Origin: Haloplasma contractile
Lineage (GTDB): Bacteria > Bacillota_I > Bacilli_A > Haloplasmatales > Haloplasmataceae
Length of the DNA stretch: 38,766 nt
Direction of reading: 5' to 3'
Assembly (NCBI GenBank): GCA_016841945.1
Contig: JAENYC010000031.1
Span: forward strand, 1 to 38,766
Shown: positions 13,757 to 38,561 of the stretch, in pieces
How positions within the stretch are numbered: position 1 is the stretch's first letter
Layout of the letters: the number at the start of each line of letters is the position of its first letter
The notes under the pieces: model-generated
Databases searched by the model: none
What the model was told of the DNA's origin: nothing
Seen by the model: only the letters and a program-made list of their open reading frames with translations
Program-made: the position numbers and the translations under genes

Positions 13757-14797
13757 CTAATTAATATTTTTATGCAATGCCAGATTAATGCCTCTAGAAA
13801 CAATGTGTGTTAAATCCTTAATATTGGTATCTATCTCTTTTGTTGTCACCATATAGTTTAATCCTTGTGGCGTCAATACTTCAAAAATTAATTTTTGCTT
13901 TTCTTCATTGGTCATAACACCTAGTTCACCAAAAAGATTTTTTAAAACTTCTTCACTTGGTAAATCAACATTTTGTAAATCCTTTTTTCCACTCATATGT
14001 TCAGGAACAAGATTATTTGATGGTCTCTTATTTTTTAAAGAATAAGCAATATGTTTTATCATCATGTCAATGGCATCATTTGTGATTGTAACTGCATCAA
14101 CAACCGTTGGAATACCGACTGATATGACGGGAATATTTAAGGTATCATAACTGATTTCTTTTCGTTTATTACCCACTCCACTTCCAGGACTAATTCCTGC
14201 ATCTGATATTTGAATAGTTTTATTGACACGGGTAAGTGCTCTAGCAGCTAAAGCATCAATCACAATCACAAATCCTGGATTAACATCTTTAATGATGGAA
14301 TGGACAATTTCAGCTGTCTCTATTCCTGTTGTGCCCATGACACCGGGTGCGATTGCACAAACTGGTCTAAATCCTTCGGGATCTATTTCTTCAGGATGAA
14401 GGTCAAAAATATGTTTAGTAACAAAAATATTTTCAATAACACTTGGACCTAAAGAATCCGGTGTCACATTATCATTACCTAGTCCTACTATTAATCCCAT
14501 CGCATCTGCTTGAATTTCGTATTTTTCAAAAAACAAGTGTATTTGATTCGCGATTTGTTTTTGAATTTTTAACAAAGTTTCATGATCATTTTCGACAATA
14601 GCTGTTGTATCAATAGTAATATAAGTTCCACTTTTCTTCCCAAATAATTCTTCTTGATCCTTAGTAATAAGTACTTCAGTTATTTTCATTTCATCTACTA
14701 TATACTCTTTAATTTTTAAATCATTCGGTTGTATTTGATTTTGTGTCGCTTCTAAACTTTCAATAATCAAATCTGTTCGTGTTGTTTTGAATTCCAT
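13757..14797 (-). CDS. gpr: Germination protease GPR
   Basis: Aspartic endopeptidase of family A25, made as a zymogen in the forespore and activated by self-cleavage; on germination it degrades small acid-soluble spore proteins. The 346-residue protein begins MEFKTTRTDLIIES, the typical propeptide start. It has VGLGNDNVTPDSLGP around residue 105 and VIDALAARALTRVNKTIQI around 180, whose aspartates (about Asp114 and Asp181) correspond to the catalytic pair. The ATG at 14797 fits AGAGGTGATG. It is divergent from rpsT, as in Bacillus. Its presence implies sporulation and substrate proteins elsewhere. Confidence 0.95.
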   Translation of the reverse strand: MEFKTTRTDLIIESLEATQNQIQPNDLKIKEYIVDEMKITEVLITKDQEELFGKKSGTYITIDTTAIVENDHETLLKIQKQIANQIHLFFEKYEIQADAMGLIVGLGNDNVTPDSLGPSVIENIFVTKHIFDLHPEEIDPEGFRPVCAIAPGVMGTTGIETAEIVHSIIKDVNPGFVIVIDALAARALTRVNKTIQISDAGISPGSGVGNKRKEISYDTLNIPVISVGIPTVVDAVTITNDAIDMMIKHIAYSLKNKRPSNNLVPEHMSGKKDLQNVDLPSEEVLKNLFGELGVMTNEEKQKLIFEVLTPQGLNYMVTTKEIDTNIKDLTHIVSRGINLALHKNIN

Positions 14798-14870
14798 ATT
14801 CATCACCTCTAAAATATTCATTAATAATATTGAAAAGAATGCAAAAAATATACTTAATTCAAAAATATTA

Positions 14871-32787: not shown

Positions 32788-33636
32788 CTACAGTTGATTA
32801 TTTAATTGGTTCACTAGTCTTTCCCCAATTTCAAAACCGATTTGATAATCATTTTTTAAAATCTCAAATTCTTTTGTTAAACGTTTCGTCTTAAACGTTT
32901 CAGGTGGATTCACTTCTATTATTTTTAACTCTTTATTATTTCGTATAAAGTCAATTGATTCTTGATATGTTTCATGTCTTTTTATAATAGATTCTTTAAG
33001 TTTTGGATGAGTAGTAAACATTAAATGAGTGATAAAATCCTTTCTTTTTTGTTTCATTGTATAAGAATAAGGTCTAGAACGAAGTACAAGGATTTTCTTA
33101 GCACCTTGATTTACTGCCTCTTTAACTGGAATAGGGTCCGCAATACCACCATCAACATAATAAACGTCATCTAGTTTAATAAAATCACGATAAAATATGG
33201 GAATGCAACTTGATGCTTTTAGAACCATTTTAATGTTTTGTACAGTAGGTTTCAAGTATTTAATCCGACCCGTTTTAACCTCTGTTACACCTACATAGAA
33301 TTTGCTTTTTGAATTGACTATTCTATCTACTTCTATTGGAATCTCTTTTAAAGTAGTATCCCATAACCAATCTAAATCAAGTAAATGTCCACCTTTTAAA
33401 AATCTTGTCCAATTAATAAAATCTTTTCTTAAGCTATAATCAGTGTAAATTTTATAGCTTCTTTGATACATATTCGCTAGAAATGATGTAAGGTTATTAG
33501 CACCAGCAGAAACACCAATACATATATCAAAAGGATTAAACTCATACTTTATAAATGCATCTAATATACCAGCTGAAAATATCCCTCGCATAGCCCCACC
33601 TTCAACTACTAAAGCAGATTTATTTAAATTATTCAT
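32788..33636 (-). CDS. Patatin-like phospholipase
   Basis: A 282-residue acyl hydrolase of the patatin family. The oxyanion stretch VVEGGAMRGIFSAGIL, the nucleophile elbow GVSAGANN with Ser43, and the DGGIADPIP motif with catalytic Asp162 are all present. The product class is lipid or lysophospholipid hydrolysis. AAGGTGAT precedes the ATG. It diverges from padR, and a -35/-10 pair lies between the two. Confidence 0.93.
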   Translation of the reverse strand: MNNLNKSALVVEGGAMRGIFSAGILDAFIKYEFNPFDICIGVSAGANNLTSFLANMYQRSYKIYTDYSLRKDFINWTRFLKGGHLLDLDWLWDTTLKEIPIEVDRIVNSKSKFYVGVTEVKTGRIKYLKPTVQNIKMVLKASSCIPIFYRDFIKLDDVYYVDGGIADPIPVKEAVNQGAKKILVLRSRPYSYTMKQKRKDFITHLMFTTHPKLKESIIKRHETYQESIDFIRNNKELKIIEVNPPETFKTKRLTKEFEILKNDYQIGFEIGERLVNQLNNQL

Positions 33637-33718: not shown

Positions 33719-33766
33719 TTGTGTTATACACAAAAATGGGATATACTATTATTGTGTGTAACACAA
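33719..33766 (+). promoter_or_regulatory. padR promoter with two identical operator half-site pairs
   Basis: TTGTGT-TAT-ACACAA (33719-33733) and TTGTGT-GTA-ACACAA (33752-33766) are the same 6-bp inverted repeat with a 3-nt centre, 33 bp apart (about three helical turns). The first overlaps -35 TTGTGT (33719-33724); -10 TATACT (33742-33747) is 17 nt further. The second covers the expected start site. This fits autorepression by the PadR protein. Confidence 0.78.
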
Positions 33767-33783: not shown

Positions 33784-34104
33784 TTGAACTCACAGTTTAA
33801 ACGCGGGATTATTGAACTATGTGTCTTAAAAATTATTAGCGAGCAAGATCGTTCTAGTTTTGAGGTGATAGAAACATTAGGTTCAAGAATTGATGTCAAT
33901 GAAAACACCATCTATCCAATTCTTAGACGCCTATCAAAACAAGATTATTTTGAAACATACACAAAATCAAGTTCAATAGGAGCTCCAAGAAAATATTATC
34001 GAATCACTTCCTTTGGCTTAAAAAAATTAGATGAGTTTCAAAAGGAGTGGAAACATTTCTTAAATAATGTACTTTCAATTTTAGGAGGAAAAGATGATGA
34101 TTAA
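33784..34104 (+). CDS. PadR family transcriptional regulator
   Basis: A 106-residue winged-helix regulator. The N-terminal wHTH reads FKRGIIELCVLKIISEQDRSSFEVIETL, then NENTIYPILRRLSKQDYF (recognition helix) and APRKYYRITSFGLKKL (wing), followed by a dimerisation helix. I choose TTG at 33784 as start because AAAGGAGG is 7 nt upstream; the open frame to 33721 includes the operators. It overlaps the next gene, and PadR regulators commonly pair with HAAS/DUF1700 membrane proteins, as here. Signal unknown. Confidence 0.92.
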   Translation: MNSQFKRGIIELCVLKIISEQDRSSFEVIETLGSRIDVNENTIYPILRRLSKQDYFETYTKSSSIGAPRKYYRITSFGLKKLDEFQKEWKHFLNNVLSILGGKDDD

Positions 34105-35176
34105 TCAATATGTTGAGAAATTAAAAACTTTACTTAATCAGTATGAAATATCTAATCAAGAAAAGCAAGATATAATCGACGATTACATACAAATGATTGA
34201 AGATGGAAAATATAAAGGACTTTCAGATAAAGAAATTATCAATATGGTTGGAACACCAGAAAAAATAGTAAAAGAACTACGGTATGAATATAAAAAAAAT
34301 GGCAGTGAAAAACTCATTGCCCTATCACCATTTGTGTCTTTTATTATTTTTATGATATTAGGATTCACAAGAAATCTTTGGCATCCAGGTTGGCTAATAT
34401 TTATATTAATTCCAATCACCGCAATTATAGTTTCAATGCTTAATGAAAAACACTTATTCACAGCATTAAGTCCATTTATATCCTTTTCTGTATTTATATT
34501 AGTTGGTCTAATTTATGATATATGGCATCCCACTTGGTTAATATTTCTTATCATTCCAATGCTTGGCATTATCAATTCTAGAGATGAAATGGATAAACTG
34601 ACTTTATTTACAGCATTATCTCCTTTTATATCTTTAATTACCTTTATATTAATTGGTTATCATTTTGGTCATTATCATCTAGTCTGGTTAGTCTTTCTAA
34701 TTGTGCCCTTATTAGGAATCGGTTATGAAAATAATATAAAACATAAGGCTTTATTGTACATATCTCTTTCAATATCAACTGCATTATATTTATACATAAC
34801 ATTATTTTTTGATAATTGGACAATTGGTCTTTTGGCATTTATACTGTTTGTTTTAACTGGATTATATACCGGTACTATTCAAATCGATTTTATTGGTACT
34901 AGTAAAGTAGATAGATTAATAATTATTATACCCATTATACTTTTTACATGTATTGGTTCTATATTTGATTTATGGGCAATTTCATGGTTACTATTATTGA
35001 TAATCCCAGTCTCAATGATTATAAAATATGGAGATAAAAACCATCTTCTAACACCGCTTAGTCCCTTTATAGCCGTCACAATATTTGTTTTACTAGGTTA
35101 CCTTTATAGTTTATGGCATCCCGCATGGATTGTTTTATTACTCATTCCGATTGTTGCTATCATAGAAAACGCTTAA
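34094..35176 (+). CDS. HAAS/DUF1700-type membrane protein with repeated two-helix modules
   Basis: A 360-residue protein. The N-terminal 65 residues (YVEKLKTLLNQYEISNQEKQDI, then VGTPEKIVKELR) are a HAAS/DUF1700 domain, the usual partner of PadR. The rest is built of about six modules near 48-50 residues each. ALSPF at 76, 124 and 174 and PLSPF at 321 each precede a helix and then a W-(H)-P-x-W motif near 96, 144, 194 and 341, with a second helix ending in IP. Modules four and five are degenerate. No DUF4097 partner follows. The start ATG (34094 or 34097) uses AGGAGG inside the padR 3' end. Confidence 0.85.
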   Translation: MMINQYVEKLKTLLNQYEISNQEKQDIIDDYIQMIEDGKYKGLSDKEIINMVGTPEKIVKELRYEYKKNGSEKLIALSPFVSFIIFMILGFTRNLWHPGWLIFILIPITAIIVSMLNEKHLFTALSPFISFSVFILVGLIYDIWHPTWLIFLIIPMLGIINSRDEMDKLTLFTALSPFISLITFILIGYHFGHYHLVWLVFLIVPLLGIGYENNIKHKALLYISLSISTALYLYITLFFDNWTIGLLAFILFVLTGLYTGTIQIDFIGTSKVDRLIIIIPIILFTCIGSIFDLWAISWLLLLIIPVSMIIKYGDKNHLLTPLSPFIAVTIFVLLGYLYSLWHPAWIVLLLIPIVAIIENA

Positions 35177-35239: not shown

Positions 35240-35267
35240 AAGACTGTATACAATAATATACAGTCTT
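35240..35267. terminator. Hairpin between the HAAS protein gene and the lipoprotein gene
   Basis: AAGACTGTATA (35240-35250) pairs with TATACAGTCTT (35257-35267), 6-nt loop. It lies between converging genes and could serve both; U-runs are moderate. Confidence 0.75.
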
Positions 35268-35279
35268 ATTTCATATACT

Positions 35280-36416
35280 TTATTCAATCGGTATCCATTC
35301 ACCATCAGTTTGATCTATTATTGTTCCATCTGCTTCAAACTGGCATGTATTGATTCGATATTGGGTTGTTTCTCCTGATATTAAATCAGTATCATATTCC
35401 TTTTCAATATAAGTATAGTTCGAACCATCAAAACTCATTGTATATTGCATATCTAAAAGAGCAAAATCTTCATCAATTAAACTTGGATTATCATAAATAG
35501 ATGCACGTTCTTCTGTATCTTCATAAATACTAATTGTAAATGATATGACTTCTTTATTATCAAGTACAAAAATGCCTTGACCATATGAACTTTGAATAGC
35601 ATAGCCATCATTTGTTTTAACAAATTCAAAGCTTAAATCAATTTCTTCACTTTCTGTTTCATATTCTTTGTATAGTATAACTCTTCCTGCATCTATCGTA
35701 GAATTATAATCAACAACAATACCATAATGATAGTCAGTACCTTCTTCTTCAGCATCATATTCTAATATATATCTTCCGTTTTGTTCTATATAAATTATAT
35801 TTTCAAAATCAAAGAAAGCAAATGTTAATTCAAAGATTTCCTGACTGGCATCATCTGTCCCAAAAGTAGTTGTTAATGCCGTTGTCATAAGTGGTAATAA
35901 AAATGAAAGATTAATACTAGCTGGTCCAAATCCTAACCAATCTTCATTTGTCGTTTCATATGCATCAATTCCCTCTATTAGTAAATCTGACATTTGATTC
36001 ATATAGGCTGTAATCCTTACAACCCCATCTGAATATGTTAATCCATCAGGAATTTGGCTAGTATCATCGTCATCATCTATCTCCCATTTAGCGTACACTG
36101 TGATATCAGAAGTGATTTCTTCTGTAAATAAAAATTCAGTGATACATTCCTCTTCTGTATACCAACCTAAAAAGATGTATCCATCTAATTCAGGGTTAGT
36201 GGGTTCTTCTGCAGTATGACCCGGTTCAACGAGTTGATTAGAAGGATTCCCTGTTGCATCATCATGATTTAAATCAAAGCTTACTGTGTATTTATTGGTA
36301 GTGTCTGTACTTTCTGTATTAGTAGTTGTATCAATACTACTATTACAACTTGACATTGAAAATATAATTATGACAGTAATTAGGATTGCAAAATAAGATT
36401 TAAAATGTTTACTCAT
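35280..36416 (-). CDS. Lipoprotein with an InlB B-repeat (Flg_new) domain
   Basis: A 378-residue secreted lipoprotein. The signal peptide (residues 4-23) ends with a lipobox-like SMSSC, placing the lipidated cysteine at 24, followed by a Thr/Ser-rich linker. Residues 43-112 form one Listeria-Bacteroides repeat with the characteristic DGYIFLGWYTEEEC and ITVYAKWE, usually a beta-grasp fold on surface proteins. A run of acidic residues links it to an unrecognised C-terminal domain of about 260 residues. Probably surface-anchored; its ligand is not known. TAGGAGAG precedes the ATG. Confidence 0.85.
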   Translation of the reverse strand: MSKHFKSYFAILITVIIIFSMSSCNSSIDTTTNTESTDTTNKYTVSFDLNHDDATGNPSNQLVEPGHTAEEPTNPELDGYIFLGWYTEEECITEFLFTEEITSDITVYAKWEIDDDDDTSQIPDGLTYSDGVVRITAYMNQMSDLLIEGIDAYETTNEDWLGFGPASINLSFLLPLMTTALTTTFGTDDASQEIFELTFAFFDFENIIYIEQNGRYILEYDAEEEGTDYHYGIVVDYNSTIDAGRVILYKEYETESEEIDLSFEFVKTNDGYAIQSSYGQGIFVLDNKEVISFTISIYEDTEERASIYDNPSLIDEDFALLDMQYTMSFDGSNYTYIEKEYDTDLISGETTQYRINTCQFEADGTIIDQTDGEWIPIE

Positions 36417-37706: not shown

Positions 37707-38561
37707 TTAATCTTCTTCTTCTTCACTGCCATCTGATCTAATTTCTGGAGTTGGTACTTCTATACCATATAATGAGAATCCATATTGAAACATGTTTAAA
37801 TGATCTTCCCAATCATTTGGATCATTAAGTGTTACAGCAATCAGATTGATTCCATTTTTACTGGCATAACTGGCAAGTGTTCGTCCTGCTGCTTTTGTAA
37901 AACCAGTTTTACCTGCAATCACATAATCTACTTGATTGACTAATCGATGTTTGTGATTCCATTCATACGGTACGCCTAATGCAGATTGAGTTTGATAGAC
38001 TTTTGTACCCGCTATTTCCCTAAACTTTTTATTTTGCATCGCATATTGCATTAATTTAGCAACATCTGATGCAGTTGATATATTTTCTCTTGGAATATTT
38101 AATCCAGATGGATTAGAAAAGTTAGTATTAGTCATACCAATGGCTTTTGCTTTTTGATTCATTAATCGAACAAAATCATCAACATTACCCGCTACATATT
38201 CAGCAATGGCATATGCTGCATCATTTCCAGAACGTAATATTAAACCATATAGTAAATCTTCTAAGGTTAACTGATCTCCTGGTTGTACATAAATAGAAGA
38301 AGGCGGTTGATTGGCAGCTTCTTTTGAAATGACAACTTGTTCACTAATATCGGCATTTTCGATCGCTAATATGGCAGTCATAATTTTAGTTAAACTTGCA
38401 ATAGGTAATTTAGTATTAGGATTCTTTGTATATAAGAATTCTCCTGTATCAGCATTCATTAAAGCTGCAGCTTTCGCACTAGTTTGAACTTGAGCACTTG
38501 CTTTAATTGTGATACATAAAAGTAATAAAAATGATAATACAAATATTAATTTCTTCTTCAT
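37707..38561 (-). CDS. D-alanyl-D-alanine carboxypeptidase (DacF/DacA type)
   Basis: A 284-residue secreted penicillin-binding protein of peptidase family S11. The signal peptide ends ASA-Q (residues 21-24). SLTK at 56-59 carries the nucleophile Ser and Lys, SGN at 111-113 and KTGFT at 218-222 complete the active site. It lacks the C-terminal PBP5-type beta domain and membrane anchor found in longer members, ending in an acidic GSEEEED tail. It trims peptidoglycan stem peptides; a sporulation role like DacF is possible but not shown. AAGGTGGTG precedes the ATG. Beyond it, 38,562-38,766 is AT-rich with nothing recognised. Confidence 0.94.
   Translation of the reverse strand: MKKKLIFVLSFLLLLCITIKASAQVQTSAKAAALMNADTGEFLYTKNPNTKLPIASLTKIMTAILAIENADISEQVVISKEAANQPPSSIYVQPGDQLTLEDLLYGLILRSGNDAAYAIAEYVAGNVDDFVRLMNQKAKAIGMTNTNFSNPSGLNIPRENISTASDVAKLMQYAMQNKKFREIAGTKVYQTQSALGVPYEWNHKHRLVNQVDYVIAGKTGFTKAAGRTLASYASKNGINLIAVTLNDPNDWEDHLNMFQYGFSLYGIEVPTPEIRSDGSEEEED

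What the first reader, a model, noticed from the sequence alone, without database searches (positions are those of the whole stretch)
34094..35176. HAAS/DUF1700 membrane protein built from about six repeated two-helix modules
After a 65-residue HAAS domain, SPF...W(H)P...IP modules recur every 48-50 residues (starts near 76, 124, 174, about 222, about 272, 321), two of them degenerate. Ordinary DUF1700 partners carry far fewer segments plus a DUF4097 partner, absent here. The architecture implies expansion by internal duplication and an unknown sensory or envelope role.
Basis: partly seen in the sequence, partly recalled or inferred. Interest (0 to 1): 0.58.

Follow-up and report, generated by a model that had tools for sequence, protein, structure and literature searches.

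The report
Self-regulated twelve-helix HAAS membrane protein
This gene pair encodes a repressor and a membrane protein built from six ancient copies of one two-helix unit; the pair is conserved across Acholeplasma and related bacteria, and the repressor appears to control only its own operon through two matching DNA sites.

Summary
In detail: window 34094-35176 encodes a HAAS domain plus six two-helix SPF...WHP...P modules (12 predicted TM helices), modules 4 and 5 degenerate; internal similarity far exceeds shuffles. This is no fresh expansion: 44 of 395 genomes of the class hold a full-length six-module protein; modules have position-specific signatures, and W-H-P of module 2 is invariant in 46 of 46. 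In 42 of 46 a PadR gene overlaps the start. Best reading: a HAAS-PadR dyad (kind proposed in PMC11237479) in which PadR represses only its own operon and the 12-TM protein is sensor and effector. A PadR-less clade keeps the TM motifs while its HAAS erodes, favouring an effector role. What the membrane domain senses or does is unknown. The module recurs in 2- and 3-copy proteins, often fused to XRE domains. New variant of a known kind.

The parts
33719..33733 (.). operator 1, TTGTGT-TAT-ACACAA, overlapping the -35 hexamer (TTGTGT 33719-33724)
   Evidence: paired dyad in 40 of 42 PadR promoters of six-module loci
33742..33747 (+). -10 hexamer TATACT, 17 nt after the -35
   Evidence: sequence; TTGTGN-17-TANNNT in 30 of 31 aligned homologous promoters
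33752..33766 (.). operator 2, TTGTGT-GTA-ACACAA, 33 nt from operator 1, over the expected transcription start
33784..34104 (+). PadR-family repressor, 106 aa, TTG start after AAGGAGG
   Evidence: PF03551 52.8 bits; start inferred from the conserved (M/L/V)N(S/T/A)QFK(K/R)G of the 31 loci listed
34094..35176 (+). HAAS + six two-helix modules, 360 aa, overlapping padR by 11 nt
34106..34276 (+). HAAS domain (residues 5-61), with GTP as the GxP motif at residues 53-55
   Evidence: G at residue 53 in 43 of 46 homologues
34307..34432 (+). module 1 (residues 72-113)
34451..34576 (+). module 2 (residues 120-161); W144-H145-P146, W148 and P155 invariant in 46 of 46
34601..34726 (+). module 3 (residues 170-211), W-H-P lost in the window
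34745..34876 (+). module 4 (residues 218-261), degenerate across the family
34904..35029 (+). module 5 (residues 271-312), SPF lost, W298 and P305 kept in 46 of 46
35042..35167 (+). module 6 (residues 317-358)
35240..35267 (+). terminator-like hairpin closing the two-gene operon
   Evidence: 1 found, 0.5 expected in shuffles

Best explanation
This is a self-contained HAAS-PadR control unit. (1) Supported by sequence: a PadR dimer is expected to bind two near-identical 15-nt dyads that cover the -35 and the start region of its own promoter, so padR and the membrane gene are kept off together. (2) Supported by sequence: the second gene makes a protein with a cytoplasmic HAAS domain and 12 TM helices in six hairpins, whose tryptophan-rich W-H-P turns face outward. 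(3) Inferred: a change in the membrane, or a ligand at the outer W-H-P face, is passed to HAAS, which acts on PadR through its GxP groove and lifts repression. (4) Inferred: because no other operator of this kind stands out in the genome, the output is more of the membrane protein itself, which acts as the effector (membrane stabiliser, or lipid- or compound-handling protein) and, through HAAS, as its own governor.
For: PadR directly upstream with overlapping reading frames in 42 of 46 full-length homologues; paired dyads in 40 of these 42 at 31-34 nt (one of the 40, L119, was paired at 55 nt there but also has a 33-nt pair), against 0 of 17 other PadR promoters and 32 of 17,339 random 130-mers. 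TTGTGN-17-TANNNT in 30 of 31 aligned promoters. Exact dyads in the own genome: 3, two here and one that reads as coding sequence by eye; with up to one mismatch 13, against 16 for the reversed control pattern, so no wider regulon is visible. K+R density 0.165 in inter-module linkers against 0.017 around W-H-P turns, over 32 proteins. Effector role: a clade without PadR (3 sure cases, 1 cut by a contig end) keeps the conserved W/H/P of modules 1-2 while HAAS identity falls. In Listeria, loss of the PadR LltR raises lmo0599-0601 more than 100-fold, and removal of the DUF1700 membrane protein Lmo0600 alone cures the cold-growth defect (PMC6624303, passages and section 8). The dyad model, with a GxP groove, is from PMC11237479 (passages).
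Against: No experiment. The HAAS-PadR contact is inferred. Seven of the 42 PadR-linked proteins lack the P of GxP but keep the G. The PadR-less cases are probably one clade, so about one event. Two of 42 PadR promoters lack the pair (L129, L177). No fold or sequence match assigns an activity to the TM region. Distant targets with degenerate operators would be missed. Only 3 of 8 genomes of the own family hold the full-length gene, so it is dispensable.
Confidence: 0.6

Rival explanations
1. A small-molecule exporter or channel under a ligand-sensing PadR (as LmrR controls LmrCD): PadR itself binds the compound and HAAS only tunes the response.
For: 12 TM helices and a PadR-type repressor with a likely autoregulated promoter; LmrR precedent (PMC4534193, start of abstract in search listing).
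Against: No transporter family or confident fold match; the invariant TM-region residues are P, F, G, W, I, L and one H, none charged D/E/K/R; in the 80-locus set every PadR neighbour goes with a HAAS or HAAS-like protein (L058 and L068 are HAAS-like by position only), which fits a protein-protein signal.
Confidence: 0.2
2. A pure sensor: the membrane protein only reports to PadR, and the useful output is other PadR target genes.
For: Membrane modules of the same kind are fused to XRE DNA-binding domains in 37 of 80 fetched loci, a pure-regulator architecture.
Against: No further operators stand out in the own genome; TM modules outlive PadR and HAAS in one clade.
Confidence: 0.15
3. A recent lineage-specific repeat expansion in this genome.
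For: Strong internal similarity.
Against: Co-linear six-module homologues in five families of the class; same-position modules match best across proteins.
Confidence: 0.03

Closest known systems
HAAS-PadR dyad systems (Ravi et al. 2024, PMC11237479)
   Same: N-terminal HAAS with GxP, standalone PadR gene directly upstream, HAAS joined to a multi-TM domain
   Different: the passages read list FtsX-like, FtsW/RodA, VanZ, PspC, LiaI-LiaF-TM and uncharacterised 2/4/6TM domains; a 12-TM domain of six W-H-P modules and the paired operator were not seen in the passages read
Listeria lltR-lmo0600-lmo0601 (PMC6624303)
   Same: PadR, then a DUF1700/HAAS multi-spanning protein, strong autorepression
   Different: a DUF4097 third gene there, none here; whether Lmo0600 has W-H-P modules was not tested
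PadR-HAAS(4TM)-DUF4097 loci of the same genome (C20, C30)
   Same: PadR + HAAS + TM
   Different: short TM part (whole protein 191-202 aa), DUF4097 partner, no TTGTGT-N3-ACACAA pair
NCBIfam NF047451 WxxxWxxW domain
   Same: 28 of 65 two- and three-module relatives match it at E<=0.001
   Different: the window protein does not match at E<=1
LmrR and canonical PadR operators (PMC3506622)
   Same: PadR-family regulators with an inverted-repeat operator
   Different: canonical ATGT/ACAT with 8-10 nt spacer (passages); here TTGTGT-N3-ACACAA, duplicated

Membership tests
HAAS (PF22564) | profile match over the curated cut-off | tested here: met
   30.6 bits against 27
HAAS-PadR dyad | adjacent standalone PadR-like wHTH | tested here: met
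   PF03551 52.8 bits, 11-nt overlap; 42 of 46 homologues
HAAS-PadR dyad | conserved GxP groove motif | tested here: met
   GTP at residues 53-55
HAAS-PadR dyad | HAAS contacts PadR and signals | not testable with these tools
   no interaction assay
PadR-DUF1700-DUF4097 triad | DUF4097 gene in the operon | tested here: not met
   own-genome DUF4097 hits are on C20 and C30 only, none on C33; terminator-like hairpin and opposite-strand gene follow
WxxxWxxW domain (NF047451) | match to the 37-residue profile over 40 bits | tested here: not met
   no match at E<=1 in the protein or the genome
LiaI-LiaF-like TM (PF18917) | profile match | tested here: not met
   no Pfam match but HAAS at E<=1; none in the own genome; the module HMM gives no significant score on four LiaI-LiaF-like loci
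PspC / PSP membrane partners | PspC profile match in the protein | tested here: not met
   only HAAS found by Pfam at E<=1
any known membrane fold | confident structural match | tested here: inconclusive
   no Foldseek match at E<=0.001 for either model; VIA Z at most 6.2

The most novel reading that the evidence does not exclude
The W-H-P hairpin is an unnamed, interchangeable membrane-sensing module of Bacillota and related Mollicutes: two or three copies alone, two fused to XRE repressors, five or six fused to HAAS with a dedicated PadR. In Haloplasma/Acholeplasma relatives the six-copy form is a stand-alone membrane-state homeostat (for example for bilayer thickness or fluidity) whose only output is its own abundance, set by two phased PadR operators.
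Probability: 0.3. Interest if true: 0.65.

Novelty: new variant of a known kind. Interest (0 to 1): 0.43.

Why it matters
HAAS-PadR pairs have been proposed as an alternative to two-component systems (PMC11237479); I know of few direct tests. Here the unit is minimal (two genes), its operators can be read from sequence, and a clade has lost PadR while keeping the membrane part. That makes the mechanism directly testable with one promoter and one protein. It also points to a recurrent membrane module that the Pfam and NCBIfam scans made here cover poorly or not at all.

Tried and rejected
Recent expansion: rejected. Phage or plasmid gene: no tblastn match in 50,697 phage or 72,556 plasmid records and no PHROG for three proteins. 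Defence system: no PADLOC match for the window protein, its PadR or L013 (the neighbouring patatin has weak effector hits only). LiaI-LiaF derivative: no sequence relation. Known fold: Foldseek and VIA gave no confident match for the 12-TM model or for a two-module model (L024, pLDDT 84.6); this does not show a new fold. Conserved third gene: none evident in the neighbourhoods of 12 loci (read by eye). Neighbour clusters of the two-module Clostridia loci look like shared synteny of close relatives (by eye). Shared regulation of the divergent patatin gene (32788-33636): its neighbour differs in L013, so not pursued. Generic sigma-70 scan: 15 sites against 15.8 expected, uninformative. Papers: six searches listed no description of this six-module family; most subscription journals are not held. 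Rows dropped or kept: L020 (cut by a contig end, 195 aa) was left out of the 46; L173 (346 aa, cut) was kept; one search used 39 of 42 PadR promoters (3 did not fit the start pattern), of which 31 had a pair at exactly 33-nt spacing. PadR upstream of L133 cannot be judged (124 nt of contig). The module alignments and topology counts used 32 of the 46 proteins, those in hand at the time. The 17 control promoters include near-identical loci (e.g. L007 and L010), so they are fewer than 17 independent cases.

Full report
Observation. The ORF at 34094-35176 (+) encodes 360 aa. Pfam gives HAAS at residues 5-61 with 30.6 bits (cut-off 27) and nothing else at E<=1; NCBIfam gives only a chance match. 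A self-comparison scores 157 on the best diagonal, against at most 70 in 300 shuffles that keep hydrophobic and polar positions apart, with offsets at multiples of about 49 residues. Six modules are found by a module HMM. AlphaFold2 predicts the HAAS helices followed by 12 long helices in six hairpins (mean pLDDT 80.3, pTM 0.54, 12-row alignment).

Topology. Over 32 homologues the linkers between modules hold 0.165 K+R per residue and the W-H-P turns 0.017. So the HAAS domain and linkers are probably cytoplasmic and the W-H-P turns face out. This is an inference from the positive-inside rule.

A fixed family, not a fresh expansion. One scan of genome contigs kept 80 loci (of 113 that encode a relative). 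A class-wide search of 395 genomes gave 210 with any match, many of them partial, and 44 full-length six-module matches. By the family labels in that table these lie in five families (f12 14, f22 13, f9 12, f1 3, f16 2). In the own family only 3 of 8 genomes have it. Named full-length holders include a Haloplasmataceae MAG, Acholeplasma laidlawii and A. granularum, Acholeplasmataceae MAGs and a Mycoplasmatota isolate. Ten aligned members are co-linear over all six modules. Modules compared across 32 proteins find their own position as best match most often (715, 570, 430, 672, 476 and 658 of 992 for modules 1-6). Each position has its own signature: W144-H145-P146, W148 and P155 of module 2 are invariant in 46 of 46; F80, W100, P107, F128, W298, P305, P324 and F325 too. 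Modules 4 and 5 are degenerate across the family. The duplications are therefore older than the family's divergence, and the copies have specialised.

Operon and operators. Counting unique full-length proteins (44 plus named MAGs L015 and L016), 42 of 46 have a PadR gene overlapping their start by 4-55 nt. Upstream of PadR in the window lie TTGTGT-TAT-ACACAA (33719-33733) and TTGTGT-GTA-ACACAA (33752-33766). With up to two mismatches per dyad, 40 of 42 PadR promoters hold such a pair. 39 are 31-34 nt apart; the fortieth, L119, was paired at 55 nt there but also has a 33-nt pair. None of 17 other PadR promoters from the fetched loci has it, and 32 of 17,339 random 130-mers do (the random set may include some true copies). 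In 31 promoters aligned at exactly 33-nt spacing, 30 show TTGTGN-17-TANNNT: the first dyad overlaps the -35 and the second covers the start region. In the own genome the exact dyad occurs three times, two here and one that reads as coding sequence by eye. With up to one mismatch there are 13 sites, against 16 for the reversed pattern. The simplest reading is a dedicated autorepressor. Known PadR operators are ATGT/ACAT with an 8-10 nt spacer (PMC3506622, passages), so this operator differs.

A natural experiment. Four of the 46 show no PadR (L123, L133, L136, L178); L133 cannot be judged because only 124 nt of contig precede it. Three of the four have lost the G of the HAAS GxP motif, whereas all 42 PadR-linked proteins keep that G; seven of these 42 lack the P. 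HAAS identity to the rest falls to 0.22 (0.36 within the rest), yet the W/H/P and PF positions listed for modules 1, 2 and 3 are all kept. In L136 the gene lies between a cation-efflux gene and an HGSNAT-type acyltransferase gene. These cases are probably one clade (all four genomes carry the same family and genus label), so about one event. It suggests that the membrane part does something useful without PadR.

A wider module. In the 80 loci, 37 two-module proteins carry an XRE HTH, 24 two-module and 5 three-module proteins have no recognised domain, and the HAAS-type ones usually sit beside PadR. Pfam finds HTH_3 in 36 of 65 of the smaller proteins; 28 of 65 match NCBIfam WxxxWxxW, which the window protein does not. 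PadR-HAAS paralogues of about 320 aa, one module shorter, exist in the class; which module is missing seems to differ between them. Stand-alone three-module proteins of 172-203 aa also occur.

Mechanism. Ravi et al. (PMC11237479, passages) propose that HAAS changes shape with a membrane signal and passes it to PadR through the GxP groove. In Listeria, loss of the PadR LltR raises its operon more than 100-fold, and deleting the DUF1700 gene lmo0600 alone cures the cold-growth defect (PMC6624303, passages and section 8). With the operators here, the best account is a two-gene unit in which PadR keeps the operon off, the 12-TM protein reports on the membrane through HAAS, and its own abundance is the output. 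The promoter part is well supported by sequence; the signal, the HAAS-PadR contact and the membrane activity are inferred. No fold or PDB sequence match gives a function for the membrane part.

Verdict.

Noticed in passing
window 13757-14821 (-) and 37707-38561 (-): Germination protease (PF03418, 414.7 bits) and D-Ala-D-Ala carboxypeptidase (PF00768): marks of a spore-forming, walled organism, although named holders of the six-module gene include Acholeplasma, which is wall-less (recalled).
   Followed up: partly
own genome C20 about 7.9-9.4 kb and C30 about 24.6-26.1 kb (L002, L107, L189, L190): Two PadR-HAAS(4TM)-DUF4097 sets; their promoters and those of some relatives share a different element, AGTACCTTG...ATACC (by eye).
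   Followed up: partly
L031, L065 and others (Clostridia): XRE HTH proteins with a membrane tail of two W-H-P modules; 36 of 65 smaller relatives carry HTH_3.
   Followed up: partly
L163-L168: Stand-alone three-module proteins of 172-203 aa with charged C-terminal tails, without HAAS; no PadR found in the fetched stretches.
   Followed up: no
L022/L112, residues about 70-86 of the six-module protein: A run of aspartates inserted between HAAS and the first module.
   Followed up: no
L169 (725-1162 and 1176-1514): Two neighbouring genes, each encoding a two-module protein: a possible step toward longer arrays.
   Followed up: no
window 35280-36416 (-): ORF with a Listeria-Bacteroides repeat (PF09479) and a lipoprotein-like start, converging on the operon.
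   Followed up: no
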